From Fulvivirga lutimaris (lineage in GTDB: Bacteria > Bacteroidota > Bacteroidia > Cytophagales > Cyclobacteriaceae), in contig NZ_SMLV01000421.1 of assembly GCF_009711525.1 (NCBI RefSeq), positions 1 to 44,999 of the forward strand: 44,999 bases of DNA, in the 5' to 3' direction. The notes beneath the pieces are model-generated. The model saw only the letters and a program-made list of their open reading frames with translations, had not been told where the DNA came from and did not search any database. Every line of letters starts with the position of its first letter. Position 1 is the stretch's first letter. Made by a program: the position numbers and the translations under genes. Below, one piece after another: positions 29,034 to 44,856 of this stretch.

Positions 29034-29735
29034 TTAAACAAACTTCTCCCTAAACTGCAGATTATACATCCCATACAGTAAGCTTAATGCACTGCCTACC
29101 ATCAGGTAAATTCTGTTTTTGAAGATTATCGTTAGCCAGATGAACTCACTCATATCTCTTGGTTCTGAGAAAGGGTTCAGGAATACATTATACGGACTGT
29201 ATTCTAATGGCTCTGCGAATACAAAGAAGATGAACGCAACAATGACAATAACAATGGCGGTACCATTACCATTCTTGATTTTTGTTGAAAGCATAAAGGC
29301 CAATGAAGACAAAAAGGCAATAGGGAAGATCACCTGGCCCAACATAGGCAAAATGTTGAACCTGTAAAGTGTGATATTGGCAATAATACCCAATACCAAT
29401 AAAATGGCAGATGCTACTCCTAAAGTAAGTACAAACCTCACCAGCCATACTTTATAGCGGTAATTAGGAATACCAAAAATGGTTTCCAACATTTTGGAGT
29501 CATCATCATTCTGGATGCCATAGGCCATAGGGTAGAAGATCAGTAATAGTCCTGGGAAGACGAGAAAACCATAGATTACTGCTTCATTGAAATCAGGATC
29601 TTCAAATATGGTGATGGTAATAATGAACCCAAAGAACAGGAATGCGGCCACTACAAAGTAGACGAATTTGTTCGCGAAGATCACTTTTACATTGTAAGTG
29701 ATGAGCCTGTATAATAGCAATAAGTAGCTTTTCAT
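29034..29735 (-). CDS. ABC-2 type permease subunit
   Basis: The 233-residue protein has about six hydrophobic helices and the layout of an ABC-2 export permease (GIQNDDDSKMLETIFGIPNYRY loop between helices 2 and 3). It carries no ATPase of its own. It is the last gene of the minus-strand efflux locus, 237 bases after the RND-ABC fusion gene, with a two-hairpin repeat in the gap. The simplest reading is that the ATPase domain at the C-terminus of that fusion drives this permease. Homologues include GldF-like permeases, but specific similarity was not tested. Confidence 0.78.
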   Translation of the reverse strand: MKSYLLLLYRLITYNVKVIFANKFVYFVVAAFLFFGFIITITIFEDPDFNEAVIYGFLVFPGLLLIFYPMAYGIQNDDDSKMLETIFGIPNYRYKVWLVRFVLTLGVASAILLVLGIIANITLYRFNILPMLGQVIFPIAFLSSLAFMLSTKIKNGNGTAIVIVIVAFIFFVFAEPLEYSPYNVFLNPFSEPRDMSEFIWLTIIFKNRIYLMVGSALSLLYGMYNLQFREKFV

Positions 29736-29972: not shown

Positions 29973-32900
29973 TTAAACTATTTCTTCAACCTCCGGTTCT
30001 AAAACCGGTTTTTTGTTTTTACTCTTCATTAACCATAAATAGGCATCCTCCAGATTTGCACGTACCTGCGTAGCATCTGGTCTTGGTTGGCTATCAGCCA
30101 AACATTTTACTCTAATCTGATCGCCTTCACGCATGTGATGTACGATCAGATAGTTCTCTTTCTCCGTTTCAAACTGATCTGGCGTTAAATGGAACTCCCA
30201 CACTTTATTATGCGCCAGCTCTGCCATGGTAGTCGGGCTACCCATGTATTCTATATTACCAGAAATCAATACTGCCAGGTTATTACAGCTGCTGGCTATA
30301 TCCTCGATAATATGTGTGGAGAATACTACAATACGCTCACGACTCAGCTCTACTAATAGGTTTCTAAACCTGATACGCTCTAATGGATCAAGACCTGCCG
30401 TAGGCTCATCAACCACTAAAATCTTCGGCAAGTGCAATAGAATCTGAGCAATACCAATTCGCTGCTTCATACCGCCTGAAAAGGAGCCTATTTTCTTATG
30501 CTGATGCTCGTCCATATGTACCGCTTTTAGCACATATTGAACTCTTGCTTCACGCTTCTCTTTGTTGGTTATCTTTCTTAATATGGCCTGATAGTCAAGA
30601 AACTGATAAGGGGTCATATTTTCATAAGTACCAAAGGCCTGTGGTAAATAACCAATCAACCCCTGCAGCTCTTCTCTGTACAGGTTAGTATCATGGCCAT
30701 TGATCCAGACCTTACCATAACTCTGATCCATAATACCACACAGAATACGCATCAATGTCGTTTTGCCGGCACCATTGGGTCCTAGTAGCCCAAACATGCC
30801 TTGCTCAATATTGAGGCTTACACCTTTCAGCGCCTTAAATTGTGCCTGCTTTGGCTTTACAAAAGGAATGGCCAGTATCAGCTTATAATACAGCTTTCTG
30901 ATCTTTTTAAATCGGCCGGTAATCTCATTAACATTTATAGGGTTAGCCTTCAGCTTTCTGGAAACACGTACTAAAAACAGTCCGATGAACCATAGAATGA
31001 TAAGGAATACTCCCAGACCTTTAGTATTGATGTCTGTATAGATGTGCATTGAACTAACGACAGGAAAACCCCAGTAAATCAATCGATAAAGGACATTGAC
31101 CAGTCTGCGTCTTTTCTTAACTAACTGCGCTGCTTCACCAAACATGGTAAGTAGTAAGGCATGCAACGAGATCATGAAGAACAGCTGCCAGAAGGCTTTG
31201 TCTAAGAAGAAATAGATGAAATATACCAGGAAGCCAATAAGTGCTCCTTGCCAAATCAGGTTTTGCAAGATACTTTTTACTGAAATTGGCTCTTCACCAC
31301 GCTCTTCATACAAATGCTTATTGCCCTTCCATTCTCTCAACCAACGTTTATCTCTGCCATAGACCTTTGTAAGGTTCTGAATTTCAATATGCATCACCTC
31401 ATCAGGAGCGACCATTTTAGCATTTGCTTGTCGCAATGAGCTCATTATAAAATGTGTACCGCCAGGAATCAATATGATGCCTGCAAGGAACCAGATCATC
31501 TGCCAGATCATGCCTTCGATTTGTAAATAAACAAAGGCACCTACCACCACAATTAAAGCAATCTGAGCTACCTTAACTGTTGCCTTCAAGTTCCTAAACC
31601 AGGTCAATACACTTTCCAGTCCGGCACTCATAGTAGGAATGTAGATAAGTGTAAGAATGGTGGCAAAGGCCAGTCCGCCCATTACCGTAACTGCAAATGG
31701 CTGCCCAATACTCACTACATACTCTGCCTCGCCTAATGCCAAAGGCAGCATAGCCACTATGGTAGTGATGGAGGTGATTAAAATTGGTCTTATCCGAGAT
31801 ATACCACTGGTTATCAGGGCTCTATACTTATCATAGCCCTGTCTTCTTAAAATACGGGAGTAGTCGATTAGGATAATGCCATTGTTGACTACCACACCAA
31901 GTAAGATCAAAAATCCAATGAGGGTATTCGCATTTAATAATGAGTTTCCTGTAAAGGTTAATCCAAGAAATGCACCAATGGCCGCCAATGGGATAGAGAA
32001 CATGATCACTATAGGCAGGTACAATGACTCAAATACTGCAGCAAGGATCATAAATATTATGATTACCGCAGCGAAGATGAGGAAGTAGAATTCATCATAC
32101 AGATTATCATCATGGATAACATCTACCACCATACCTGAAGGGATATTAACACCAGCTACCAATTGATCAATTTCAACTCTTGAAGCTTCCAATAAAGACT
32201 CAGAACCTTGAACTTCATCGATAAAACTATAAGTAATTTCAATGCGCTTTTCCTGATTTAATCTAGTGATAGTGCTTTCTCCGGAAGAATAAATAACCGA
32301 CCCAACATCAGATAAATTGTGGCTGACACCTGCTGTGCTTGTGATTGGCATTTCTCGCAAATCTTTCATTTCCTTAGCAGATTCTTCTACCTGATTTTTG
32401 GTTCGAATAGTGATTTCATACTCTTCGCCACCGCTCACAAAATTAGACCCTGAAGTAAATGAAGGTTGGAAATCATTCAGTGCTATAGCAACATTCTGTT
32501 GTGTGATGTTATTAGCACTCATTCGTTTCTGATCGAATAAAATATGCGCTTCAGGCCGATCAGGGCTAATATTTACTGTGCTTCGATCAATAGATTGAAG
32601 GCTGCTGACAAAAGTATTGATGTCATTAGCAATGGTCTTCATGAGCTCAAAGTCTTGTCCTTTGATGATGATTCTTTCCTGAGCACTTCCAATACCTAAC
32701 ATCCGCTCAAAATCAGTAGAAGCAGAGCTCGCTGCTCCACCTTGTCCACCTCTTTGCCGTGGTGGTTCGTCCATGGATATTTCGAGATCTTCGAAATCAT
32801 CAGCTATGCTGTTAAGCTTATCACGTACATCTTCGACTGAAATGGTATCCAAATCCAGAAAACCTTCTACCAGGCTGATGCCTAATACAGCATCACCTTC

Positions 32901-34709
32901 AGATATCTGACTGATTACATTTTCAACCACAGGTATTTCCATTACCTTTTCCTCGATTTTTCTTGTTCTAATATCAGTCGACTCTAAAGTGGAGCCCTGT
33001 GGCATGGTGACGAACAGGTTCATATTTGTGTTTTCCACCTCATTTAAACTGGCAACACTCACCAATAAGCTCAAGCCAATGGTCACGAAGAAGAGCACCA
33101 GGCCACCAATAACAGTGAAAGCTGGTCTTCTAAAGCATGACTTTAATACCACCATATAAATCTGGATGATGCGCTGACGGATTGATGCGTTTTTAATTAA
33201 TGGTGCCTTTTGCTGATCATCTTTACTAATGGCAGTATGGGCCAGCATTGGAATCAAAACAAGCGCTACTACAAGTGAAACCAATAGTGTAGAAATGATC
33301 GAAACACCAATGTGTGTCCCTATCAAAGTCACCAGAAAATTAGAAGAGAAGATGAATGGCAGGAATACCGTAACCGTTGTTAGTGTAGCAGCAACAACAG
33401 ATCGCATAACCTCTTTGGTGCCATCAACTACCGCATCGGTGATTGGTCTTTTATTCACCACATGGCGATAAATGTTTTCAATAACCACAACACTGTTATC
33501 CAGCAGCATACCAATGGCCAGCGCCATACCAATAAGTGTTAAACTATTGATGGTAATACCTGCAGCATAGAAGAAATTGAAAGCCGTGTAAACCGAAATA
33601 GGAATAGCCAGTGCAATGCTCAGAATGAACTTGAGCCTTCTTAGGAAAACCCAGAGCACAAAGATGGCTAGCAGGCCTCCTGTTATGGCCAGATTCTTAA
33701 TCTGATCAATATTTTTGGTCATTAGCTCAGCCTGATTGCTTTGGACTAAAATCTCGACATCAAGTGCCTCCAAATCCTTATTAATCGCTTCTATAGTGGC
33801 TAATGTTCTATCTGAAAGGGCTATGAGATTAGCTTGAGTATCTTTTGATAATCTGAGAGAGACAGCTTCTTTTCCATTGACTCTACTTAATGAAGTCTCC
33901 TCTTTCACTCCGAAGAATACATCAGCAACATCGCTGAGCAGGAGTGGCCCTTTATCAGAAACTACAAGACTTTGGATGTTCTTAATGTCTTTGAGCTCTG
34001 CGGTCACATTCACAAATACCTGTCTTCCATCTCGCTCCACCTGACCTGCGAATGCGCTTTTATTAGAGTTTTGTGACAGCACATTGCTAATAGTATTGGG
34101 AGTAATGCCATTGGCCTCGCATACCGCATCATTCATAATGATTTCTACAGTCTTTTGACGACCACCAAACACTTCTACGCCACCAACACCATCAACATCG
34201 TTCAGACGGTCTGTAATGTACTGATCTGTGACATTACGCACTCGATCTACACCACCGCTACCAAGCACCTGTAAATCCATAAAAGTGTTGGTAAACTGCT
34301 CGGTATCAATTTTGACGATATTGACGACAAATTCAGGAGTCAGCTGAGATTTAATAGCCCCAACCTTTTGCTCTAATTTCAGATAAGCGTATTTGATATT
34401 GACGCCCTGCTGAAAGGAGATGAAGATCATTCCTTGTTGGCTGTCAGCATTGGCAGTTATCTCTTCAACCCCTTCCAAAGTGCTAATGACACTTTCTAAA
34501 GGCACAATGGCCTGACTCTCCATGTATTTAGGATCAACCTCTGAAGTTGAACCTACCTGCACGATAAGAATGGGCAATTCTACATTAGGAAAAAGCTCAA
34601 CCGGCAACTTGTTATAGGAGATATAACCCATTACTGAAAACCCAATGAATAGCATCGAGATCAGTACCTTGCGATTAATGATTGTATGTAATAGTCCCGG
34701 CTTACCCAT
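29973..34709 (-). CDS. RND efflux permease fused to an interrupted ABC ATPase domain
   Basis: This 1578-residue fusion starts with a full HAE1-type RND permease (about residues 1-1035; TM4 motif GMLLDNSVVV with D404). Two extra hydrophobic helices follow (about 1045-1095), then a first ABC strand (MHIEIQNLTKVYGRD, from Met1106). Next comes a membrane insertion of about 170 residues with roughly four helices (to about 1285), and then the rest of an ABC nucleotide-binding domain from FKALKGVSLNI (about 1291). The ATPase looks intact: Walker A GPNGAGKT (K1316), Q-loop YLPQ, signature FSGGMKQR (S1411), Walker B VVDEP (E1435), H-loop STHI. Normal RND pumps have about 1040 residues and use proton force only. 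Its start overlaps the previous RND gene by 8 bases. Confidence 0.93.
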   Translation of the reverse strand: MGKPGLLHTIINRKVLISMLFIGFSVMGYISYNKLPVELFPNVELPILIVQVGSTSEVDPKYMESQAIVPLESVISTLEGVEEITANADSQQGMIFISFQQGVNIKYAYLKLEQKVGAIKSQLTPEFVVNIVKIDTEQFTNTFMDLQVLGSGGVDRVRNVTDQYITDRLNDVDGVGGVEVFGGRQKTVEIIMNDAVCEANGITPNTISNVLSQNSNKSAFAGQVERDGRQVFVNVTAELKDIKNIQSLVVSDKGPLLLSDVADVFFGVKEETSLSRVNGKEAVSLRLSKDTQANLIALSDRTLATIEAINKDLEALDVEILVQSNQAELMTKNIDQIKNLAITGGLLAIFVLWVFLRRLKFILSIALAIPISVYTAFNFFYAAGITINSLTLIGMALAIGMLLDNSVVVIENIYRHVVNKRPITDAVVDGTKEVMRSVVAATLTTVTVFLPFIFSSNFLVTLIGTHIGVSIISTLLVSLVVALVLIPMLAHTAISKDDQQKAPLIKNASIRQRIIQIYMVVLKSCFRRPAFTVIGGLVLFFVTIGLSLLVSVASLNEVENTNMNLFVTMPQGSTLESTDIRTRKIEEKVMEIPVVENVISQISEGDAVLGISLVEGFLDLDTISVEDVRDKLNSIADDFEDLEISMDEPPRQRGGQGGAASSASTDFERMLGIGSAQERIIIKGQDFELMKTIANDINTFVSSLQSIDRSTVNISPDRPEAHILFDQKRMSANNITQQNVAIALNDFQPSFTSGSNFVSGGEEYEITIRTKNQVEESAKEMKDLREMPITSTAGVSHNLSDVGSVIYSSGESTITRLNQEKRIEITYSFIDEVQGSESLLEASRVEIDQLVAGVNIPSGMVVDVIHDDNLYDEFYFLIFAAVIIIFMILAAVFESLYLPIVIMFSIPLAAIGAFLGLTFTGNSLLNANTLIGFLILLGVVVNNGIILIDYSRILRRQGYDKYRALITSGISRIRPILITSITTIVAMLPLALGEAEYVVSIGQPFAVTVMGGLAFATILTLIYIPTMSAGLESVLTWFRNLKATVKVAQIALIVVVGAFVYLQIEGMIWQMIWFLAGIILIPGGTHFIMSSLRQANAKMVAPDEVMHIEIQNLTKVYGRDKRWLREWKGNKHLYEERGEEPISVKSILQNLIWQGALIGFLVYFIYFFLDKAFWQLFFMISLHALLLTMFGEAAQLVKKRRRLVNVLYRLIYWGFPVVSSMHIYTDINTKGLGVFLIILWFIGLFLVRVSRKLKANPINVNEITGRFKKIRKLYYKLILAIPFVKPKQAQFKALKGVSLNIEQGMFGLLGPNGAGKTTLMRILCGIMDQSYGKVWINGHDTNLYREELQGLIGYLPQAFGTYENMTPYQFLDYQAILRKITNKEKREARVQYVLKAVHMDEHQHKKIGSFSGGMKQRIGIAQILLHLPKILVVDEPTAGLDPLERIRFRNLLVELSRERIVVFSTHIIEDIASSCNNLAVLISGNIEYMGSPTTMAELAHNKVWEFHLTPDQFETEKENYLIVHHMREGDQIRVKCLADSQPRPDATQVRANLEDAYLWLMKSKNKKPVLEPEVEEIV

Positions 34710-37700
34710 GAGAAACTGCAGTTTTTTCTGTTTTGCTACCTCTCAACCATGCTACAAAGTTTTCAATACTTTCATAGAAGCAAGGAATGATAATCAGCGT
34801 TAGTAATGTTGATGTTACCAATCCGCCAATTACTGCTATGGCCATAGGAGCTCTTAAGGCAGCACTTTCGCCAAACCCAAAAGTAAGCGGTAAGAGTGCC
34901 AGTATTGTGGTTAAACTCGTCATGATTATCGGTCTAAACCTGCGCTGACCTGCATCTAGAATAGCTTCCCGTAAGGGCATGCCGTTGAGTTTGTTTTTAT
35001 TAATACTATCCACCAGAATAATGGAATCATTTACGGCAATACCTGTCAGCATAATGATGCCTATAAAAGCCATCATGTTAAGCGGCATTCCTAAAATAAA
35101 GAAGGAGAGGAGCGCACCTACTCCGGCCAATGGAATGGTTAGCAAAATGGTAAATGGATGAAGCAGCGATTCAAATTGAGAAGCCAGCACCATATATACT
35201 AATAACACTGAAAGGATCAGTGAGAATGTCAGGTTCTCCATAGACTCCTGGCGCTTAATTTCCTGTCCTGCTACATCAATTTTGTATTGTGGAGGTACCG
35301 AAAGTGATGAGAAGGAGTCCTCTATCGACCTTACTACCTTGTCATAGGCCTTTTCCTGATTCACACGAGCACCGATAGAAACCATTCTTGTTTGATTCTT
35401 TCTATAAATAGAATTAGCAGCATATTGAACACTGATATTAGCCACCTCGCCTAATGGAAATTCCCTTGTCCCACTTTTGATCCGCATGTTTTCGAGACCT
35501 GCCATCGAAATTTTAGGCACTTTGATCTGGATGTCTTGCATTTCGCCACCTCGTTCAATGGTCCCAGCATTTTTACCTTCCAGCTGATCCTTTATCTGAC
35601 TGATAATATCATCAATAGAAAGGTTAAGTAATCCAGCTCTGTATTTATCAACATCAACTTGTATTTGAGGCACACCCTGCTCATAATTAGACATTGGCTC
35701 ATAAATATCTTCGTTGCTGCCCATGACTAATATAACCGAGTCTGAGAGAGGGCCGAGCGCGTCAAAGCTAGCGCCACTGATTTCTACAACTAATGGCATT
35801 TCTTCATCGCCTAATACCGCATTTAAAGCACTTTCATCATTTGAGAAGGTGGCATCAATACCTGGAATTCCTTCAAAATAATTGGAGAGCTTTGCAGTTA
35901 CATTAGCAATATCCATTTCTATATCTTCTCTAAAGATGAGTTTGAGGCTAGCCTTGTTTTCATCATAAACATTCTCATTCTCAATGCCAGACTGGCTTTG
36001 CTCCGGACCGATGTGAGAATACACTTTGTCCAATTGGCCATCAAATAACTCTAATAGCTGACTTTCTACCTGACCAACTGTAGCTGATGTTCTGGATAAT
36101 GGTGTACCATTAGTAAGGCTTAGATCTACCGAAATAGCTCTGGTGCCAGATTGAGGCATATATTCACTACCTATGATACCGATCAGTTGATAAGCACCTA
36201 ATACCATGATAAAAGAACTAATGATAAAAGCTATTCTATGCTTAAGCACTCTATCTAAAAATGCTCTGTAAGCTTTGAATTTTAATGGCTGTACTTCCTG
36301 AACTGTTTTGTCTTTTTTGAATATTCTGGAGAATAACATCGGAATAACGAGAATTGCCACTACTAATGAAGAAATAAGAGAAAATGCCACTGTCCATGCC
36401 TGATCTCTAAATAATTCGCCAGATGGCCCCTGAAGGTATACTATAGGCAAGAATACTATGATAGTGGTTAGTGTAGAAGCAGTGATAGCGCCACTTACTT
36501 CGCTGGTACCTTGAATTGCAGCATCGATAACACTTAATCCTTCCTCACGCTTTCGAAATATGCTTTCTACAACCACAATAGCATTATCAACCAGCATACC
36601 GGCTCCTAAAGCGAGTCCACCTAATGTCATTACATTAAGTGTAAGTCCATTGAAGTACATTAAGTTGAATGTAGCAATGATAGAGATAGGTATTGCAATA
36701 CTAATAATTAGTGTGGAGCCCATTCTTCTTAAGAAAATAAAGAGTACAATCATGGCGAACAGGGCACCATAAAGGCCTGACTCTTTTACTTCATCAATTG
36801 CACCTTGTATAAAGCGTCCCTGATTTTGAATAACCACAAACTCATAGCCTGGTACTGATTTCTTAAGATCCTCCAACACATCTGTTAATTCATTAACTGC
36901 ATTGACGGTGTTGTACTTGGTTTCTTTATAAATGGACATCCCCAGACTTCTTTTCTGGTTGACACGAACAATGCTGCTCGCTTCTTTGTCCATGATTTTA
37001 AGTGTCGCTACTTCTCGCAATAATACAGGAACCTGATTTGATGTTGATGATTGATTATCAGCACTTTGTGATGTACTAGCTGTAGTTGAACTGGAATTAC
37101 TTGCTGCATTTTGTCTGGTAGTATAACCGACTACTAATTCTTCCAGATCCTCAGGTTTTTCTATTATGCCTAATCCTTTGATGACATACTTTTTACCTAA
37201 CTCTTCAATAAAACCTCCAGAGACATTTCGGTTATAGTTTTCAATTTTAGCTACAAGATCATTTACTGTAAGACCAAAGGCGGCTAACAGGTTAGGATCC
37301 GTTTCTAATACTACTTCCTTCTCCAGATCACCAGAAAGTCTAACTTCTGCAATACCCGGAAGTCTGATAAGCTCATTTCTGAAGTTGTTTTCTGCCACCT
37401 TGCGTAAAGCTTCCTGATCATCAGAATTGGGATTGAAAATGCCCAATATCATGATAGGAGTGGCATTAGGATCAAATTGCGAAATCACAAATTCATCAAT
37501 ATCATCATTTAAAGAGAAGCTGGATAACGCTTTCTGAAGATCTAGAAAGGCTTCATCCATGTCCTTGCCCCAGTCGTACTGAACAGTAACACGGCCATAG
37601 CCTGTTTGGCTAATAGAGCTTACTTCTACTGCTCCATTTTGTCTGATAGCTACAGATTCGATGTCTTCTATAAATTGCTTTTCTACTTCAGAAGGTGGTC

Positions 37701-37863
37701 TGATGCCCACTTTCAGCTCTACGAAGAGTGTAGGGTTCTTTAAGTCAGGAAATAGCTCTATACCTAATTTTCCGAAGGAGATGGAGCCTAGTAAAATTAC
37801 GGCCAGCACCATCATAAGGATGGAAATGGGGTAAGATACGGCTAGTGATACAATCTTTTTCAC
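34702..37863 (-). CDS. RND efflux permease (HAE1-type)
   Basis: The 1053-residue protein has the standard RND layout: an N-terminal helix, a large porter loop, helices 2-6 with the TM4 motif GMLVDNAIVVVES (D426), a second large loop, and helices 8-12 with TGIAVNDSIILVD. It exports hydrophobic or amphiphilic compounds with the membrane-fusion and TolC-type proteins encoded just upstream. Like many Bacteroidota pumps it lacks the TM10 lysine of AcrB. A Ser/Thr/Gln/Asn-rich insert of about 25 residues lies in the first loop (near 250-275). The next gene, a second RND permease fused to an ABC ATPase, overlaps it by 8 bases, so the two may form a heteromeric trimer. Confidence 0.93.
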   Translation of the reverse strand: MKKIVSLAVSYPISILMMVLAVILLGSISFGKLGIELFPDLKNPTLFVELKVGIRPPSEVEKQFIEDIESVAIRQNGAVEVSSISQTGYGRVTVQYDWGKDMDEAFLDLQKALSSFSLNDDIDEFVISQFDPNATPIMILGIFNPNSDDQEALRKVAENNFRNELIRLPGIAEVRLSGDLEKEVVLETDPNLLAAFGLTVNDLVAKIENYNRNVSGGFIEELGKKYVIKGLGIIEKPEDLEELVVGYTTRQNAASNSSSTTASTSQSADNQSSTSNQVPVLLREVATLKIMDKEASSIVRVNQKRSLGMSIYKETKYNTVNAVNELTDVLEDLKKSVPGYEFVVIQNQGRFIQGAIDEVKESGLYGALFAMIVLFIFLRRMGSTLIISIAIPISIIATFNLMYFNGLTLNVMTLGGLALGAGMLVDNAIVVVESIFRKREEGLSVIDAAIQGTSEVSGAITASTLTTIIVFLPIVYLQGPSGELFRDQAWTVAFSLISSLVVAILVIPMLFSRIFKKDKTVQEVQPLKFKAYRAFLDRVLKHRIAFIISSFIMVLGAYQLIGIIGSEYMPQSGTRAISVDLSLTNGTPLSRTSATVGQVESQLLELFDGQLDKVYSHIGPEQSQSGIENENVYDENKASLKLIFREDIEMDIANVTAKLSNYFEGIPGIDATFSNDESALNAVLGDEEMPLVVEISGASFDALGPLSDSVILVMGSNEDIYEPMSNYEQGVPQIQVDVDKYRAGLLNLSIDDIISQIKDQLEGKNAGTIERGGEMQDIQIKVPKISMAGLENMRIKSGTREFPLGEVANISVQYAANSIYRKNQTRMVSIGARVNQEKAYDKVVRSIEDSFSSLSVPPQYKIDVAGQEIKRQESMENLTFSLILSVLLVYMVLASQFESLLHPFTILLTIPLAGVGALLSFFILGMPLNMMAFIGIIMLTGIAVNDSIILVDSINKNKLNGMPLREAILDAGQRRFRPIIMTSLTTILALLPLTFGFGESAALRAPMAIAVIGGLVTSTLLTLIIIPCFYESIENFVAWLRGSKTEKTAVSHG

Positions 37864-37987: not shown

Positions 37988-39046
37988 CTATTGAATGACA
38001 CTCACTTTAGACTTGTTTCTTAGTGTTTCAAATCCTGTAACTACCAGCCTGTCATTGACTTTAAGTCCGCTGAGCACCTCAATCACATCCATATTTTCAA
38101 GCCCAGTGGTGATCTTCTTTTCTGTAGCAATACCGTTCTCTACTGTAAATACAACCTTACCATCCTGGCGTGAAATAATTGTTTCTTTAGGGATTACAAT
38201 GGTGCTATCGCGTTTCTCTGATAGGATTGCAGCCTTAATGAACATGCCTGGACGTAGTAATCGCTTGTTATTGTCTATTTGCAACACACTCTGAAAAGTT
38301 CTAGTGTCCGCATTAACAATAGGAGAGATCTGGCTTATTCTTCCTATAATGGTGTCTTTAGCGATGTTGTAGTTAGTGATCTGCACAAGCTGATTCATTG
38401 TAACTTCAGGTAAGTGTTTCTCTGGAAGTTTGACATCCATCAAAAGGTTGTTGTATTCCATCACTTTAAATAAATCTAAGTTCTGATCTATCCTCACTCC
38501 ATCAGTATGGTAGGGCAGCTCTACAATCACACCATCAAAAGGTGCTCGAACGGCCATTTTGGCTATCTGTATCTCTGCATTTTCATAGGAATACTTTGCA
38601 TTGACATACTCAATTGAAGCATTTTTAAGCTCAGTTTGTGTTACACCACCCTTATCATACAAAGACTTTTGCTTCGTGAGGTTGTTCTCAGCTAGCTCGA
38701 GATTTAGTTTTTTACCTTCAAGTTGTAGATTGTTAACAAATTCTTTGTCTTCAATTCGGATAATCACCTGTCCGGCTTTTACCATATCACCAAGGGCAAA
38801 TGGCTTTTTAGTTGCCGGATTATTCTGAAGCCTGTAGAAGCCTCCCAGTTCAGACTTCATAGTTCCTTCTTTAGAAGAATAAACCGTTCCTGTGGTCTCT
38901 ATAAACCTGGAGATACTTTCTGGCTTAATACTGATTACTGATACTGGGATTTTGATTTCTGTATCGATATTAGACTCTTCGCTATCACATCCAAAAATTG
39001 AAATGGATAACAATAGTGTTAAAGCAAAGAATAGGTTCTTTCTCAT
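37988..39046 (-). CDS. RND membrane-fusion (periplasmic adaptor) lipoprotein
   Basis: From the start at 39046 the product has 352 residues and a lipoprotein signal (MRKNLFFALTLLLSISIFGC) with the Cys at residue 20; the frame extends 17 codons upstream without improving the signal. It shows the HlyD/AcrA order: a beta-strand, a lipoyl half (GDMVKAGQVIIRIEDKE), an alpha-hairpin (about 110-165), the second lipoyl half (VRAPFDGVIVELP), a beta-barrel and a membrane-proximal domain with LRPGMFIKA and VVTGFETL. It bridges the RND permease and the TolC-type factor. It is co-directional and shares the operon layout. Confidence 0.92.
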   Translation of the reverse strand: MRKNLFFALTLLLSISIFGCDSEESNIDTEIKIPVSVISIKPESISRFIETTGTVYSSKEGTMKSELGGFYRLQNNPATKKPFALGDMVKAGQVIIRIEDKEFVNNLQLEGKKLNLELAENNLTKQKSLYDKGGVTQTELKNASIEYVNAKYSYENAEIQIAKMAVRAPFDGVIVELPYHTDGVRIDQNLDLFKVMEYNNLLMDVKLPEKHLPEVTMNQLVQITNYNIAKDTIIGRISQISPIVNADTRTFQSVLQIDNNKRLLRPGMFIKAAILSEKRDSTIVIPKETIISRQDGKVVFTVENGIATEKKITTGLENMDVIEVLSGLKVNDRLVVTGFETLRNKSKVSVIQ

Positions 39047-39118
39047 GTCAGTGAAGGGTTTGATTTGAGAATTTGGGTTATGTGTTGTGCGTTGCATAAT
39101 CTATGTATTCTGGGGTGA

Positions 39119-40633
39119 TTAGTAGTTGTTTTGAGTGATAACCGGTTCCTGATTCTCAAAATCATATAAAGAGAGAATCTTAAGATTTAGTAATTCTATT
39201 TTGTAGTTGATCAGGGCATCAGCTAATGCACTTTTCTTTTCTGATAGCTGACTTTGAAACCTGTTTAGGTCTATACTGGTAAGATCGCCATTTCGGTATC
39301 TCTCCAAATTAAGATCATAGGTAAGCTCCGCATTTTTAACATTCTGTTGAGCTATTTCTATCTGGTTTTCAAGGTTTTGAAGGTTTCTGTATACTTTTCT
39401 GATGCCAATGGTGATGTTCCTTTCTTCAACTTCAAGGTCCACTCTGTTGATCTCTAAATTGGCATTGGTAGCTTCCATACGCGCCTTGTTTTCACCCCAA
39501 TCCCAAATAGGAATACTAAATGAAATGGCCACCCGAGGATTCATAGTAGGGGACTCATAGATCTCCGGAGCACGGGCATTATCACCAAATACACCTAAAG
39601 ACAATGAAACGGAACCTTTGAATTCATTTAAAGCTTTGGTGCGTTGCAGTTCAAACTGGGAGCGCTCAATGGCTATACCACGTTGTCTCAGTTCCATTCT
39701 GTTCTCTAAGCCATGAGTAATGGCTTGGTTTAGATCCACATCACGGGTAATGAAGTTGATGTCTACCTGCACTTCAACTTGCTCATCCAAATCCATACCC
39801 AGCAGCATTTTGAAATCATCAGCAGCGTTGTTTAATAGTACCTGATTGTTCTCTAATGTTGATTTAGATGTAGAAAGGTTCAATTCTGCCTGATATAGCT
39901 CTTCACGTGCAAGTAGATCAGCGTCAACCTTGTTTTTAGTAATCTCATAACTGACTTGCTGATTCTCATACTCATCTAATGAAATCTCAAGACTATTTTG
40001 ACGCTGGTAAAGTGTGTAGAACGACTGGGTCACATTTTGCTCGAGTGTGAGCAATTGCAAAGAATTGCTTATCTGAGCATTTTCCAAATTCAGTTCTAAT
40101 TCCTTTAACTGAAGCTTATTCCTGTTGTAAGTAAAAATGGGTTGATCTACCTGAAGGTATAAGTTATTGCTGTATGTTTTGGTTCTGGAATCCTGAAATT
40201 CAGAGTAGTTGTCTCTATAGCCTAATCTATTTACCAAAGAGACTGTACCATCAGTAGCAGCGATTGGCTGGCTAACAGAGAAATTGGCAAAGGAGTTATA
40301 ATCCTCATTTGTATTCCACTGAGAAAACAGGTCGTTGAACATACGTGTCCTATTATAATCGAATGGTGTAACATCTAAAGAAAACCTCGATTTCATAGCA
40401 GCACGTTGTGCATCCAGACTCCTCTGATTACTAAAGAGGTTAAGCTTTGATTTCTTGATATCAAGGCTACTGCTTTGGGCAATAGTTATGGATTCATCCA
40501 ATGTAAGCTTCCGCTGCGCCATACTAGCCGTGGACACCAGGCAATAGCAGCCAATGAGCACCACAAGCCTGAACAGCTTTTGATGGTTTGAGAACCTTTT
40601 CTGATTCATATTGATTTGTTGTTTTTGACTCAT
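39119..40633 (-). CDS. TolC-family outer-membrane efflux protein
   Basis: The protein of 504 residues has a signal peptide (hydrophobic stretch LFRLVVLIGCYCLVS, cleavage near SMAQ) and two long OEP-type helical repeats that form the TolC channel. These include YQRQNSLEISLDEYENQQ and the second-repeat RYRNGDLTSIDLNRFQSQLSEKK, where the typical YxxGxxxxxDLL/N motif is visible. It starts 6 bases after the stop of the ABC-2 fusion gene; an alternative Met lies 24 bases later. It provides the exit duct for the RND pump and possibly for the linked ABC modules. Confidence 0.93.
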   Translation of the reverse strand: MSQKQQINMNQKRFSNHQKLFRLVVLIGCYCLVSTASMAQRKLTLDESITIAQSSSLDIKKSKLNLFSNQRSLDAQRAAMKSRFSLDVTPFDYNRTRMFNDLFSQWNTNEDYNSFANFSVSQPIAATDGTVSLVNRLGYRDNYSEFQDSRTKTYSNNLYLQVDQPIFTYNRNKLQLKELELNLENAQISNSLQLLTLEQNVTQSFYTLYQRQNSLEISLDEYENQQVSYEITKNKVDADLLAREELYQAELNLSTSKSTLENNQVLLNNAADDFKMLLGMDLDEQVEVQVDINFITRDVDLNQAITHGLENRMELRQRGIAIERSQFELQRTKALNEFKGSVSLSLGVFGDNARAPEIYESPTMNPRVAISFSIPIWDWGENKARMEATNANLEINRVDLEVEERNITIGIRKVYRNLQNLENQIEIAQQNVKNAELTYDLNLERYRNGDLTSIDLNRFQSQLSEKKSALADALINYKIELLNLKILSLYDFENQEPVITQNNY

Positions 40634-40639
40634 AATATT

Positions 40640-43600
40640 TTATTGCTTAACCCATTTAATAGCATCTGCATATACCGTTCTCATATCACATTCATCTGTT
40701 AATGAGACACTTCCGCCAGTTTTATTGAAGAAATATGACCCCAGATAATTCCAGCCCGGCTCTGCATTTGTTATGTTGTATTTTATATTATCTGTACCAT
40801 CACCATGATTAATGATGTAGTGATAGTTGAATTGTCTGCCATCACCATCACGGCCGTAATATTCATTCTGATTCTTGCCTTTCATGTACACATAAATGTC
40901 ATAGAAGCCCTCTTCTTTAAATTCAGGTGTCCATGTTGTGGTTTTATCGCCACTGCCAGATCTTGTGAAATGAGCCGATCTGATGACACTACCATAAAAA
41001 TCAGAGCCTGTAGTGGCCAGCCATTTAGAGTAGGAGCGGAACCAGCTACCATGATATTTTTTCTCAGTAGTACTACGTCCATCAAGGTATGCCCTTAGGT
41101 AAGTTGGTTCAATAGGGCTGAAGGTTGTAAAGCCTGGATCTTCATTATCTACAATCACCTCATATTGACTTGAAGTTGGTAACGCTTCTACTATTCTTTC
41201 ACCTTCGAAAAGTGTTCCTCCTTCACGCTTTGTCATTGTTCCAATAGACATTGAGATAACTGAGGGTATGTTTCTGGAAATGATGGTATTAACTGTTATC
41301 TCATTTGGTTTCTCATCAAGAACAAAACCCATATGCTTAATATGCCCTTGTTTTATAACAGAAAGGTGCCCTGGTGCTTCTTCTTCTGTTTCCTCATTTA
41401 CTCTGCGTCTGTAGTCATTAGGAGAATCTTCGCCAGTATTGAATTTTATCTCCACTACACCATCATTCTCACCAGAGTTTTTGATGTCCATGAGCACCTG
41501 ATAGCGTTTTCTGTCACCATCGAGCACTTCATATTTCTGAACATTCATTACTTCAAATGCAGGCTGAGATTTATCAAAATATACTTTCTTAATAATAGGA
41601 TCGATGTCCAGTTCAAATCTTTCTACTATGGCCTTTCTAAACTCTTCATAACTTGTAAGTTGATGTTGATGGCTGTTTACCCAGTTGTATAGGAATTCTT
41701 TAAATTCAGTTTCACCAACTACCTGACCGAGGTAGGAAAATAGGTATTGACTTTTAAGTGACACCGACTTCTTGATCTTATTAAACTTTGAAGATGTTAG
41801 AATTTCGGTCAATGATGACTCACGCATCAACTCATTACATTCCTCGGTAAAAGAAATACCGTTAACGTTTCTAGAATAGTCATACGCACTCTCTTTGTCA
41901 TTTCTCAAATAAGTGGCAATACTTCTGTTCAGTAAATCCCATTCTTTACTCACAATACCTGAGCTGTAAGTATAATAATTTGGAAATAGTGAATAATCAG
42001 GTTCGTCTTCATCACGGCCATCAAAGACCCACCCTTCACCAATCTGCTTGGTCAACACTTTCTTTACCAGATCATTAAATACATTCGCTTGTTTTTGCTT
42101 GTCTGTTAATGTCTGATTCTGCTCACGGGCTTGTCGATTCATATCTCGCAGCTGTCTTCTAAAGTCATACTGTCTGATATTACCACCTTCTTCAGGCCAG
42201 AAAACCGTTTCTGGTTGCAGGTAAGCCTGATGGCTTTCATAAATCTTATTATAAGCCATAAAGTGGATAGGTGTTTCTACAAATAGCATCCTTTTGAAAG
42301 GGTAGGAGAGCTTTTGGGCATCTTCATATTCATTAGAAACATCAGTGATAAGATAGCTCAATGTGTCTGACAACTCAGTAAGTTGCGTTTCAAAATAGGT
42401 GTTTTTAGGGTAGTGATAGACAGCATAATTAACGCTGTCAACCATAATTTCTTTCTTGACATAGTCACCAATAACCAATGAGATTTGAGGCAGATCATAC
42501 TCTGGTTTAAAATGATAAGTGTTGCCCTCTACTGTCAATTCACCCTGCGAGATAGGGGTTAGTCCTTCAGGAGCGGTAACAGACAATTCAAAATTGATAA
42601 AGGCTTGACGCTGCTTTGTTGTGGCCTCTCGGCTATAGCCAACTTGAGTATCTGGGTACCAGAGCACATCTTTTGTCAGCAATACATAATCAGGTTGAAG
42701 AAAAGCATACTTCTTCTTTAGAGAATACATCAGATAATCGTAGGGAGACTCATACCTTTCCTGTTCCACTTCCAGGTGAGCGGCAGCTTCTGATATTCGC
42801 CCATGGTATTTTAACTGTACTTCAGATTTTTGACCTGGACGGATGTTAACGCCTTGCTTTACTGATGCTATCTGTAACTCTCTATCAACCTGTTGTGACT
42901 TACCATTTACTTTAGCTTCATCTACTTCCAATTCTGGGTTCAGTGTAAAATAAATCTGATTTAGAGCTTTTGAGGTATTGTTTTGAACCATGAGCGTTGA
43001 GGTGCTGATAATCTCACCGTCAACTAATTCTAATTCAAGACTATTAGAAACAATATCTACATTAGGAATATCAGCCCACTTACCATTAACAGTAATCATA
43101 TCCTGACGTATAGAAATAGTCTCCTGGCGCATGTTCCAGAGCTTAACTATAATTAGAGAAGCGAAACCTAATACTCCAACCCCCAGAAGCCCGGTTGTTA
43201 TTTTGGTAGCTCTGTGGCTCGATAAGCGATCAAGAAAAAACGCAGTTAAGAATAGTAATCCAATGCCTGTAATAAAGTAAAACAGTCGTTGACTTAATGC
43301 GAATTCAAAATCTGCAAAGCCTGTCATCTCTGAGCCTAATAATGATAGCCTGAAAGCCATAAAGTCCAGAATATTTGAGAACTGATCGAAGTAGTAGATC
43401 AGCTGTACACCTGCTACACCCAGTAGTAGCACGATAGTTATTGGTTGATTTTTTAGTAGTGTTACAACCAAAAAGGCTATTCCTGTTGTAAATACAATAC
43501 TTGGTACACTTATCAACAAAGGGTAAGCTACAAAGGCTAATGGGTTAAAGGTAGTGTAGGGGCTTGTGAGATTAACAATCACCGGAATACACAGTAATAC

Positions 43601-43969
43601 CAAATTCAATAAAAAGAATAGCTTAAAAAGCGCTAAAGCTTTACCAAGCACAAAATCCAGGTTTGTTATTGGTCTTACAAAGAACACTTCGTTGGTGTCA
43701 ATTTTCTTGTCTTTTTTAACAAGTCCAGTAGCCAGAAATATAACTGCTGCTACCTGTGGGATGCTGATCATCACCATTACCGCTGACGGCATTATAAAGC
43801 TATTGGACAGCACAAACCACCTAGGGTCGTCTACTTCAGAGAAAACTGCAATATTAAAAACGGTAACAAAGAATAGACCTGCCAAGGCAACTATTCTGAA
43901 GAACCAATTTCTCCAAAGCACTTTCGATTCGTATTTAGCTATGGTTAATATGTTTTTGATAGAAATCAT
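40640..43969 (-). CDS. ABC-2 permease / M1-peptidase-like (no HExxH) / golvesin-like fusion
   Basis: This 1109-residue protein has three parts. Residues 1-285 form an ABC-2 type permease with about seven helices (SYYESKV-like start, then VFFVRPITNLDFVLGK). Residues about 300-800 follow the peptidase M1 order: N-terminal beta-sandwich, then a region with ETPIHFM (about 563). I find no HExxH anywhere, so it is probably not a peptidase. The last 175 residues (from about 935) look like a golvesin C-terminal domain (TTWTPEFKEEGFYDIYVYM, then a glycine-tryptophan GWNYLG, then VYADAIKWV). It overlaps the upstream ABC ATPase gene by 4 bases (ATGA), so the two are partners. Confidence 0.88.
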   Translation of the reverse strand: MISIKNILTIAKYESKVLWRNWFFRIVALAGLFFVTVFNIAVFSEVDDPRWFVLSNSFIMPSAVMVMISIPQVAAVIFLATGLVKKDKKIDTNEVFFVRPITNLDFVLGKALALFKLFFLLNLVLLCIPVIVNLTSPYTTFNPLAFVAYPLLISVPSIVFTTGIAFLVVTLLKNQPITIVLLLGVAGVQLIYYFDQFSNILDFMAFRLSLLGSEMTGFADFEFALSQRLFYFITGIGLLFLTAFFLDRLSSHRATKITTGLLGVGVLGFASLIIVKLWNMRQETISIRQDMITVNGKWADIPNVDIVSNSLELELVDGEIISTSTLMVQNNTSKALNQIYFTLNPELEVDEAKVNGKSQQVDRELQIASVKQGVNIRPGQKSEVQLKYHGRISEAAAHLEVEQERYESPYDYLMYSLKKKYAFLQPDYVLLTKDVLWYPDTQVGYSREATTKQRQAFINFELSVTAPEGLTPISQGELTVEGNTYHFKPEYDLPQISLVIGDYVKKEIMVDSVNYAVYHYPKNTYFETQLTELSDTLSYLITDVSNEYEDAQKLSYPFKRMLFVETPIHFMAYNKIYESHQAYLQPETVFWPEEGGNIRQYDFRRQLRDMNRQAREQNQTLTDKQKQANVFNDLVKKVLTKQIGEGWVFDGRDEDEPDYSLFPNYYTYSSGIVSKEWDLLNRSIATYLRNDKESAYDYSRNVNGISFTEECNELMRESSLTEILTSSKFNKIKKSVSLKSQYLFSYLGQVVGETEFKEFLYNWVNSHQHQLTSYEEFRKAIVERFELDIDPIIKKVYFDKSQPAFEVMNVQKYEVLDGDRKRYQVLMDIKNSGENDGVVEIKFNTGEDSPNDYRRRVNEETEEEAPGHLSVIKQGHIKHMGFVLDEKPNEITVNTIISRNIPSVISMSIGTMTKREGGTLFEGERIVEALPTSSQYEVIVDNEDPGFTTFSPIEPTYLRAYLDGRSTTEKKYHGSWFRSYSKWLATTGSDFYGSVIRSAHFTRSGSGDKTTTWTPEFKEEGFYDIYVYMKGKNQNEYYGRDGDGRQFNYHYIINHGDGTDNIKYNITNAEPGWNYLGSYFFNKTGGSVSLTDECDMRTVYADAIKWVKQ

Positions 43970-44856
43970 ACCAGCGATACTCCTAATTCATTTTCCATAA
44001 AATATACATAGGCATGCTCCAGGTTAGGGTTAGCATTCTTAGCTCTTGGGTGTGGCTGATCGTTAGCAATCAACTGTACTTCCCACTTACCCTCGGTAGG
44101 AATGGTGGAAACCACCGGATATTTCGCCTTCAGCTCATTAAACTCTTCATCATCAAGAAGCACCTGCCATACATGCCCTCGTACTCGCTCTATCATGCCT
44201 TCTGGTGATCCTTTAAAGGCCACCTCGCCTTTGTTTAACATAGCCATATTGTGACATGTACTGCTTATATCACCAACAATGTGTGTGGAAAGGATAATTG
44301 TAACATCCTTCTGGCTTAAGTCTGACAAGATGTTTCTAAACCTGATGCGCTCTTCGGGATCAAGACCAGTAGTAGGCTCATCAATTACCAATAATTTTGG
44401 ATTACCGATCAAAGCCTGCGCAATACCTAATCTCCGTTTCATACCACCAGACAGCTTATTGGCCATTCTTTCTCTTACATCGAGCAGACCAACCTGATCT
44501 AATAGCTCATCCACTTTTTTGATGCGTTCCTTTTTCTTTAAAGAAGTTGATAAACTCGCTGCATAATCCAGAAACTCCCAGGTTTTCAGTTTTGAGAAAA
44601 AAGTGAAATCCTGAGGGAGATAACCTATTAATGGTCTGATCTTCTGGCGATGCTCATTGATATCCATGCCATCAATAAGAATAGTGCCAGAGGTAGACTT
44701 TTGAACTGTTACCAGGATTCTCATGAAGCTGGATTTTCCTGCTCCATTAGGTCCTAGTAGTCCGAACATACCACTACCTATTTCGAGATTGATGTTTTTA
44801 ATAGCCGCAAAACCGTTAGGGTAGACCTTAGAAAGACCTGTGATCTCTATATTCAT
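43966..44856 (-). CDS. ABC transporter ATP-binding protein
   Basis: The 296-residue protein is a complete ABC ATPase: MNIEITGLSKVY strand, Walker A GPNGAGKS (K41), Q-loop YLPQ, signature LSGGMKRR (135-142), Walker B VIDEP (E160), and H-loop STHI (H192). An extra C-terminal domain of about 80 residues ends with a NLEHAYVYFM helix. It is the first gene of the efflux locus and overlaps the permease fusion gene by 4 bases. The C-terminal extension and several internal stretches match the ATPase domain at the end of the RND-ABC fusion, so the two are paralogues. The GldA-like ATPases of gliding systems are the nearest family known to me. Confidence 0.93.
   Translation of the reverse strand: MNIEITGLSKVYPNGFAAIKNINLEIGSGMFGLLGPNGAGKSSFMRILVTVQKSTSGTILIDGMDINEHRQKIRPLIGYLPQDFTFFSKLKTWEFLDYAASLSTSLKKKERIKKVDELLDQVGLLDVRERMANKLSGGMKRRLGIAQALIGNPKLLVIDEPTTGLDPEERIRFRNILSDLSQKDVTIILSTHIVGDISSTCHNMAMLNKGEVAFKGSPEGMIERVRGHVWQVLLDDEEFNELKAKYPVVSTIPTEGKWEVQLIANDQPHPRAKNANPNLEHAYVYFMENELGVSLV

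What the first reader, a model, noticed from the sequence alone, without database searches (positions are those of the whole stretch)
29973..34709. RND permease carrying an ABC ATPase whose fold is split by a membrane insertion
One 1578-codon frame joins a complete HAE1-type RND permease to a complete ABC nucleotide-binding domain. The ABC domain is interrupted: its first strand (MHIEIQNLTKVYGRD at about 1106-1120) is separated from the second (FKALKGVSLNI at about 1291) by about 170 residues with roughly four predicted membrane helices. All ATP-binding and signature motifs are kept. The paralogous free-standing ATPase at 43966-44856 has the two strands joined by four residues, so the insertion point can be seen directly. 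RND pumps are normally proton driven; this would tie ATP hydrolysis to an RND pump, or tether the ABC motor of the neighbouring permease to it.
Basis: partly seen in the sequence, partly recalled or inferred. Interest (0 to 1): 0.88.

Follow-up and report, generated by a model that had tools for sequence, protein, structure and literature searches.

The report
Drug-pump protein fused to split ATPase
Some Bacteroidota carry a gene for one giant membrane protein that joins a proton-type efflux pump to an ATP-burning motor whose fold is interrupted by an unknown membrane segment, with the same partner genes beside it, which suggests an undescribed hybrid export machine.

Summary
It is not an assembly fault: 52 of 58 related loci reach the NBD and all 52 keep it in one frame, with a 170-180 residue insert and all ATPase motifs. 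The fused NBDs form one clade (100/99). Where flanks allow, gene order is the same: free NBD, ABC permease with M1-like domain, TolC, adaptor, RND1, RND2-NBD, six-helix ABC-2-like permease. In 148 genomes of the family the fusion and the last permease occur in the same 21. Best reading: the fused and free NBDs power a two-permease ABC exporter tethered to a two-RND tripartite pump. Assembly and ATP coupling are inferred. AcrB's D408 and K940 are asparagine in 52 of 52 fusions, but a plain RND pump of the same genome shares that pattern, so loss of proton drive is not shown. My searches of an open-access library showed no description of such a fusion.

The parts
29973..34709 (-). RND2-NBD fusion protein, 1578 aa
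   Evidence: open frame; Pfam ACR_tran + ABC_tran; one frame in all 52 of 58 related loci that reach the NBD
31620..34688 (-). RND permease part, residues 8-1030; D407-equivalent D404 kept, D408-equivalent is N405, K940-equivalent is N942, R971-equivalent R974
31434..31583 (-). two-helix membrane hairpin between RND and NBD, residues about 1043-1092
   Evidence: hydropathy; helices 13-33 and 37-62 of model ma88a1764cdd1
31356..31394 (-). ABC strand beta1 with A-loop tyrosine (label recalled), residues 1106-1118
   Evidence: profile match z 7.2; strand in both models
30840..31349 (-). insert of 170 residues with four membrane helices between beta1 and beta2, residues 1121-1290; no convincing Pfam family
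30024..30839 (-). rest of the ABC nucleotide-binding domain and its C-terminal extension, residues 1291-1562; all ATPase motifs present
29034..29735 (-). Perm6: 233-aa membrane protein, ABC-2-like permease, presumed partner
   Evidence: downstream of the fusion in 50 of 51 loci with room; ABC2_membrane_3 in 9 of 25 members, best E 2.7e-5, window copy only E 5.5; same 21 of 148 genomes as the fusion
34702..37863 (-). RND1 permease, 1053 aa, overlaps the fusion gene by 8 bases
   Evidence: ACR_tran E 3.9e-204; upstream of the fusion
37988..39097 (-). membrane-fusion (adaptor) protein
   Evidence: RND_mfp TIGR01730 above its cut-off
39119..40633 (-). TolC-type outer membrane channel
   Evidence: OEP, Pfam
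40640..43969 (-). PermM1: ABC-2-like permease with M1-peptidase-like part (no HExxH) and Golvesin_C end
   Evidence: its membrane domain is found in 20 of the 21 genomes with the fusion and in no other of 148
43966..44856 (-). free-standing ABC NBD, 296 aa, paralogue of the fused NBD

Best explanation
This is the core subunit of a composite exporter made by one seven-gene cluster. RND1 and RND2 form a two-RND pump (as MdtB and MdtC do) that works with the adaptor and TolC. The fused NBD on the end of RND2 pairs with the free NBD, and this NBD dimer drives a two-permease ABC-2 exporter made of PermM1 and Perm6. The fusion, with six extra membrane helices, four of which carry the chain into the membrane and back between beta1 and beta2, locks the ABC half next to the RND half. 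The likely sequence is that the ABC half moves a hydrophobic or amphipathic substrate across or out of the inner membrane and hands it directly to the RND pocket, which sends it through adaptor and TolC. Shown: the frame, the split NBD sequence, its conservation, the gene order, the co-occurrence. Inferred: NBD pairing, physical complex, substrate hand-over, any influence of ATP on the RND cycle.
For: One frame with all ATPase motifs in 53 of 53 sequences including the window (one, L042, begins mid-RND), insert length 170-180. Purifying selection: in the four least saturated of nine compared pairs (two share L066) dN/dS is 0.003-0.125 for RND, hairpin, insert and NBD, the 16-codon beta1 piece aside. 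Gene order: RND1 within 0.8 kb upstream in 54 of 55 loci with room (the exception L055 also has RND1 upstream, its fusion frame being split by a stop), Perm6 within 0.5 kb downstream in 50 of 51 (exception L057 runs into N), all seven genes in order in 35 of 58. Fusion and Perm6 in the same 21 of 148 genomes, PermM1 in 20 of these. Two NBDs and two ABC-2-like permeases per cluster. Fused NBDs one clade 100/99, free NBDs one clade 98/97 in a 60-row tree. Twelve RND plus two plus four helices put both halves of the NBD on one side of the membrane (topology rule recalled). MdtBC associates as a B2C complex (PMC4338810, passages).
Against: No direct evidence of a complex, of ATPase activity or of a substrate. 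Perm6 is only weakly recognisable as ABC-2: the window copy has no significant Pfam hit, and among its relatives an unrelated family (Acyl_transf_3, 3 of 25, best E 1.2e-4) scores not much worse than ABC2_membrane_3. Perm6 and PermM1 profiles do not align convincingly (probability 3-4%). In some genomes the genes lie on different contigs, so linkage is not seen everywhere (for example G131). The RND trimer and the NBD dimer differ in symmetry, so stoichiometry is open. The structure model of the junction is of medium quality (pLDDT 81.5, pTM 0.62) and the larger one is poor (67.4, 0.41).
Confidence: 0.5

Rival explanations
1. Two separate machines share a polypeptide: the fused NBD dimerises with a second fused NBD and works with Perm6 as its own ABC transporter, while the free NBD works with PermM1. 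The tether only secures co-localisation and equal amounts.
For: Perm6 lies directly behind the fusion and the free NBD directly before PermM1, so each NBD has its own neighbour permease. Both NBDs of the window keep all catalytic motifs, so neither needs a partner to repair a degenerate site.
Against: In 148 genomes the two pairs are not seen apart at E 1e-10, except that PermM1 is missing in the 880-contig genome G052; this favours one machine.
Confidence: 0.22
2. ATP hydrolysis drives the RND cycle itself: the NBD acts on the RND membrane domain through the extra helices, replacing or assisting the proton motor.
For: The NBD is covalently joined to the RND membrane domain. The AcrB relay positions D408 and K940 are N and N in 52 of 52 fusions (window included); in 50 RND1 sequences they are N or I and N or S. 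In AcrB substitution of one of the relay residues abolishes extrusion (PMC8277102, passages).
Against: D407, R971 and T978 equivalents are kept in 52 of 52. A plain RND-adaptor cluster of the same genome (contig C162), with no neighbour similar to the window's NBDs, has the same D-N and N pattern, so this is a wider RND type. I know of no precedent for an NBD acting on an RND fold.
Confidence: 0.15
3. The NBD is a regulator: its ATP state gates or assembles the RND-adaptor-TolC channel, in the manner of MacB's mechanical transmission (recalled), without transport by an ABC channel.
For: Single adaptor and TolC in the cluster; fusion at the C-terminal end of RND2.
Against: It leaves the co-occurrence of two ABC-2-like permeases with the fusion unexplained.
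Confidence: 0.1
4. Assembly or gene-calling artefact, or a pseudogene fusion.
For: None found in these calls.
Against: Genomes named for several orders show the same frame, and so do single-contig genomes such as G116 and G036; low dN/dS.
Confidence: 0.01

Closest known systems
AcrB-type HAE-1 RND permeases (AcrB, MdtB, MexB)
   Same: Whole-length ACR_tran match, twelve membrane segments, adaptor and TolC genes beside it, D407, R971 and T978 equivalents kept
   Different: D408 and K940 equivalents are asparagine; about 550 extra residues with six membrane helices and an ABC NBD; far below the NCBIfam subfamily cut-offs (445.5 against 1250 bits)
MdtABC / MuxABC two-RND pumps
   Same: Two different RND genes in tandem with one adaptor; MdtBC associates as B2C with split roles (PMC4338810, passages)
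   Different: No ABC part is mentioned in the passages seen
ABC-2 exporters with DrrA/GldA/NosF-like NBDs; ABCA transporters
   Same: NBD motifs and closest profile or fold hits (ABCA3, ABCA4 and NosF in PDB, GldA and DrrA in NCBIfam, the latter below cut-off)
   Different: NBD fused to an RND permease and split between beta1 and beta2 by a membrane segment
CFTR NBD1 regulatory insertion (residues 405-436)
   Same: An insertion near the start of an NBD (PMC3776845, passages; that it lies between the first two strands is recalled)
   Different: About 30 disordered residues, no membrane helices
MacAB-TolC
   Same: An ABC transporter that works with adaptor and TolC (PMC5985334, abstract start in the listing)
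   Different: MacB carries its own ABC membrane domain and no RND part (recalled)
ArsA-ArsB
   Same: An ATPase implicated in energising a carrier by forming a complex with it (PMC2963123, abstract start in the listing)
   Different: Unrelated ATPase and carrier families, separate proteins (recalled)

Membership tests
HAE-1 RND permease | Full-length ACR_tran domain | tested here: met
   E 1.1e-154, residues 8-1027, 517 bits against cut-off 28
HAE-1 RND permease | Twelve membrane helices | tested here: met
   12 hydrophobic segments in residues 15-1024
HAE-1 RND permease | AcrB proton relay D407, D408, K940 | tested here: not met
   D407 kept 52 of 52, D408 to N 52 of 52, K940 to N 52 of 52, window included
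HAE-1 RND permease | NCBIfam named RND subfamily cut-offs | tested here: not met
   best 445.5 bits against 1250 (NF033617)
ABC nucleotide-binding domain | Walker A, Q-loop, signature, Walker B with catalytic Glu, H-loop | tested here: met
   kept in 53 of 53
ABC nucleotide-binding domain | Contiguous beta1-beta2 hairpin | tested here: not met
   170-180 residues between them in 53 of 53
ABC nucleotide-binding domain | beta1 joins the NBD sheet | tested here: inconclusive
   profile match z 7.2 and DSSP strand in both models; partner strand not seen
ABC-2 exporter | ABC-2 membrane domain partner | tested here: inconclusive
   ABC2_membrane_3 in 9 of 25 Perm6 members, ABC2_membrane_2 in 13 of 21 PermM1 members; window copies below the curated cut-offs
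Two-RND (MdtBC-like) pump | Two different RND genes in tandem with one adaptor | tested here: met
Two-RND (MdtBC-like) pump | Functional heterotrimer | not testable with these tools
   needs purification or structure
M1 peptidase (PermM1) | HExxH zinc motif | tested here: not met
   absent in 41 of 41 PermM1 sequences; present as HELAH in the 1207-codon frame beside the NBD on contig C243 of this genome

The most novel reading that the evidence does not exclude
A first class of hybrid exporter in which a primary (ATP) transporter and an RND pump are one covalent machine, so that ATP hydrolysis in an NBD that is threaded through the membrane directly sets the RND cycle or its loading, letting RNDs with a reduced proton relay work. 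It would also be the first NBD known to me whose fold is completed across a membrane-inserted segment.
Probability: 0.3. Interest if true: 0.93.

Novelty: new variant of a known kind. Interest (0 to 1): 0.8.

Why it matters
RND pumps are textbook proton antiporters and ABC exporters textbook ATP machines; tripartite systems are sorted by which of the two energises them. A conserved protein that is both, with an ATPase fold interrupted by membrane helices, makes it possible to ask in a genetically defined system whether the two energy sources can be coupled in one pump, and suggests that an NBD can tolerate a membrane domain between its first two strands.

Tried and rejected
Artefact or chance fusion: rejected by 52 uninterrupted frames in related loci and low dN/dS. 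Extra six helices as a hidden ABC-2 permease: profile comparison of the joint (A3) with Perm6 (A4) and with PermM1 (A5) gave probabilities of 1.3% and 0.2%. Pfam on the joint gave only scattered weak hits, at most 6 of 24 members for one family and best E 0.0016; PDB gave a GPCR at E 0.03, taken as hydrophobic noise. Loss of proton drive from the D-N and N pattern: weakened by the control RND on contig C162. Unfused intermediates: none seen. In one search four frames are shorter than 1550 codons (G052 1222, G089 1514, G131 1483, G029 649); their contigs are 5115, 5273, 5133 and 3933 bases long and the frames run off an end. G048 and G139 matched only the NBD part and were dropped from the 23, leaving 21. 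L057 looked like a fusion without NBD but runs into N. A pattern-based count of relay motifs missed many RND1 sequences and was replaced by the alignment count. The model of residues 379-1578 was too poor to place the NBD on the RND. Foldseek confirmed the NBD fold but did not show whether beta1 was aligned. Literature: searches returned no paper; others (9 papers; 12 of 21 listed; 10; 1) showed none whose title or abstract start describes an RND-ABC fusion. Of these I looked further only into PMC8277102, by term passages. The library is open-access PMC only.

Full report
Observation. The minus-strand frame 29973-34709 is open for 1578 codons. Pfam places ACR_tran at residues 8-1027 and ABC_tran at 1294-1438. 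Between them lie two hydrophobic helices (centres 1059, 1080), the strand MHIEIQNLTKVYG from 1106, and four more hydrophobic peaks (1160, 1181, 1215, 1238) before FKALKG at 1291. A beta1 profile from free-standing relatives ranks 1107-1118 first of all windows in the protein (27.2 bits against 6.3 for the next, z 7.2) and the same site first in 52 of 53 family members; in L062 it is second.

Reality of the fusion. A scan of genome contigs (84,980 species by the tool's description) returned 60 loci, of which L069 and L070 match only an NBD; the other 58 are relatives with titles of Bacteroidota. In 52 of the 58 the DNA encodes the joint through beta2, and in all 52 it lies in one open frame; L042 begins mid-RND at its contig start. 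The other six end before: L046, L052, L055, L056 and L063 at a contig end, L057 at a run of N; L055 also has a stop inside its RND part and L056 a broken RND frame. All 53 sequences including the window keep beta1, Walker A, Q-loop, signature, Walker B and H-loop, with 170-180 residues between beta1 and beta2. In the four of nine compared pairs whose synonymous distances were lowest (two of them share L066), dN/dS is 0.003 to 0.125 for RND, hairpin, insert and NBD; in the other five synonymous change was high or saturated. The insert is the least conserved segment (0.53 mean majority share) and the NBD the most (0.82).

Surroundings. Upstream on the same strand lie RND1, adaptor, TolC, an ABC-2-like permease with an M1-peptidase-like part, and a free NBD; downstream lies a 233-aa membrane protein, Perm6. 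Of 58 loci, 55 have room upstream and 54 show RND1 within 0.8 kb; the exception L055 has RND1 too, but its split frame upset the distance test. Of 51 with room downstream, 50 show Perm6 within 0.5 kb; the exception is L057 with the run of N. All seven genes in order are seen in 35 of 58; I did not count why each of the other 23 falls short, but many are cut by the 10-kb flank or a contig end. Stretches of G260 and G485 (other class), G487 (other family of the same class) and G690 (other family of the same order) show the same order in what they cover. In G116 (L139) a 148-aa frame sits between fusion and Perm6.

Co-occurrence. In 148 genomes of the family the joint region matched 23 at E 1e-10; G048 and G139 match only NBD residues, leaving 21. 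Perm6 is found in exactly these 21 and the PermM1 membrane domain in 20 of them, missing in the fragmented G052. None of the three is found in the other 127 at that threshold. The three calls name the same handles, so I take the draw to be the same. In some of the 21 the genes lie on different contigs (G131 on three; G029, G076 and G089 with PermM1 apart), where linkage is not seen. Elsewhere the fusion is patchy: 6 of 395 genomes drawn from the phylum and 4 of 291 from the order, the window's own genome included in both, and 1 of 197 from the class of G260, which is G260 itself. Frames are 1561-1640 codons. In one search they are 1572-1600 for 17 of the 21, and the four shorter ones run off short contigs. 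I saw no unfused form.

Origin. For a tree I drew 14 loci at random from those with both NBDs (52 fused and 18 free sequences were available after filtering) and added the window and 30 rows from this genome, among them duplicates and one copy of the window's free NBD. The 15 fused NBDs form one clade (100/99); the 15 free NBDs form another (98/97, with that copy inside). Both sit with one further NBD of this genome (contig C243) in a group supported 96/87. Many outgroup branches are long, so deeper order is unsure. This fits one duplication followed by insertion and fusion once.

Structure. AlphaFold2 of residues 1031-1578 with 53 sequences gave pLDDT 81.5 and pTM 0.62: helices 13-33 and 37-62, strand 77-87, a helix 92-106, four long helices 114-138, 142-164, 171-196, 200-225, then strand 261-272 and the NBD. 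The 1200-residue model repeats this order but is weak (67.4, 0.41). DSSP calls beta1 a strand in both, which requires a partner, but no coordinates were given, so pairing with beta2 is inference. Foldseek matches ABC NBDs (ABCA4, TM_1403, NosF, LptB). The insert resembles no Pfam family convincingly and neither permease of the cluster.

Energy. AcrB uses D407, D408 and K940 with R971 and T978; substitution of one of the conserved relay residues abolishes extrusion (PMC8277102, passages). In 52 fusions, the window included, D407, R971 and T978 equivalents are kept in all, and D408 and K940 are both asparagine in all. In 50 RND1 sequences D408 is N in 45 and I in 5, K940 is N in 49 and S in 1, and T978 is M in 2. 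Of five other RND frames of the genome, L002 has the full set, L009 (contig C162) is D-N and N like the fusion, L006 has G and L, L007 D and R, L008 D and N at the D408 and K940 positions; these distant rows may be misaligned in places, and L009 was cut at the locus edge. On C162 no frame of at least 150 codons is similar to the window's NBDs. So the reduced relay is not peculiar to the ABC-fused pump and does not show that the pump lost proton drive.

Mechanism. The pairing of fusion, Perm6 and PermM1, with two NBDs and two ABC-2-like permeases per cluster, makes a single composite machine the most economical reading: a two-permease ABC exporter held against a two-RND tripartite pump, with the fused NBD as the physical bridge. 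The ABC-2 label of Perm6 is weak: ABC2_membrane_3 in 9 of 25 members (best E 2.7e-5), with Acyl_transf_3 in 3 of 25 at 1.2e-4 beside it; PermM1 is better (ABC2_membrane_2 in 13 of 21, best 7.1e-7). Even helix counts (12 + 2 + 4) leave both halves of the NBD on the cytoplasmic side (inference from topology). Whether ATP only loads the RND pump or sets its cycle is open. Two-RND pumps are thought to split roles between subunits (PMC4338810, passages).

Novelty. Searches for RND-ABC fusions in the held open-access library showed none, judged from listings. An insertion near the start of an NBD has a precedent in CFTR (residues 405-436, PMC3776845, passages; its exact place between the strands is recalled), but not with membrane helices as far as I know. 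I rate the system a new variant of known kinds, joined in a way that I have not seen described.

Noticed in passing
window 27304-28926 (-): Caspase-domain protein (Peptidase_C14, E 9.4e-18; NCBIfam caspase_w_EACC1 below cut-off) downstream of the cluster; no relative of it appears in the context table of L011-L070.
   Followed up: partly
window 40640-43969 (-): The M1-like part of the ABC permease lacks the HExxH zinc motif in 41 of 41 family members and ends in a Golvesin_C domain, while the 1207-codon frame beside the NBD on contig C243 (L101) has HELAH.
   Followed up: partly
L138 3558-6222: In genome G033 the cluster is preceded by another ABC ATPase, a membrane-like frame, a short frame that looks like a GntR-type regulator (label recalled) and a 238-codon frame; L052 has relatives of the last three.
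   Followed up: no
L103 1665-6584: The fusion of G487 is in a 1640-codon frame with an extra polar stretch of about 30 residues in the insert, ahead of its first membrane helix.
   Followed up: no
L139 773-1216: A 148-aa frame lies between the fusion and Perm6 in G116; a relative is found in L089, and in L072, which is the same place of G116.
   Followed up: no
L009 / L134 5877-9377: A plain RND-adaptor cluster of this genome has the same reduced proton relay (D-N in helix 4, N in helix 10), so an RND type without D408 and K940 also occurs without ABC genes beside it.
   Followed up: partly
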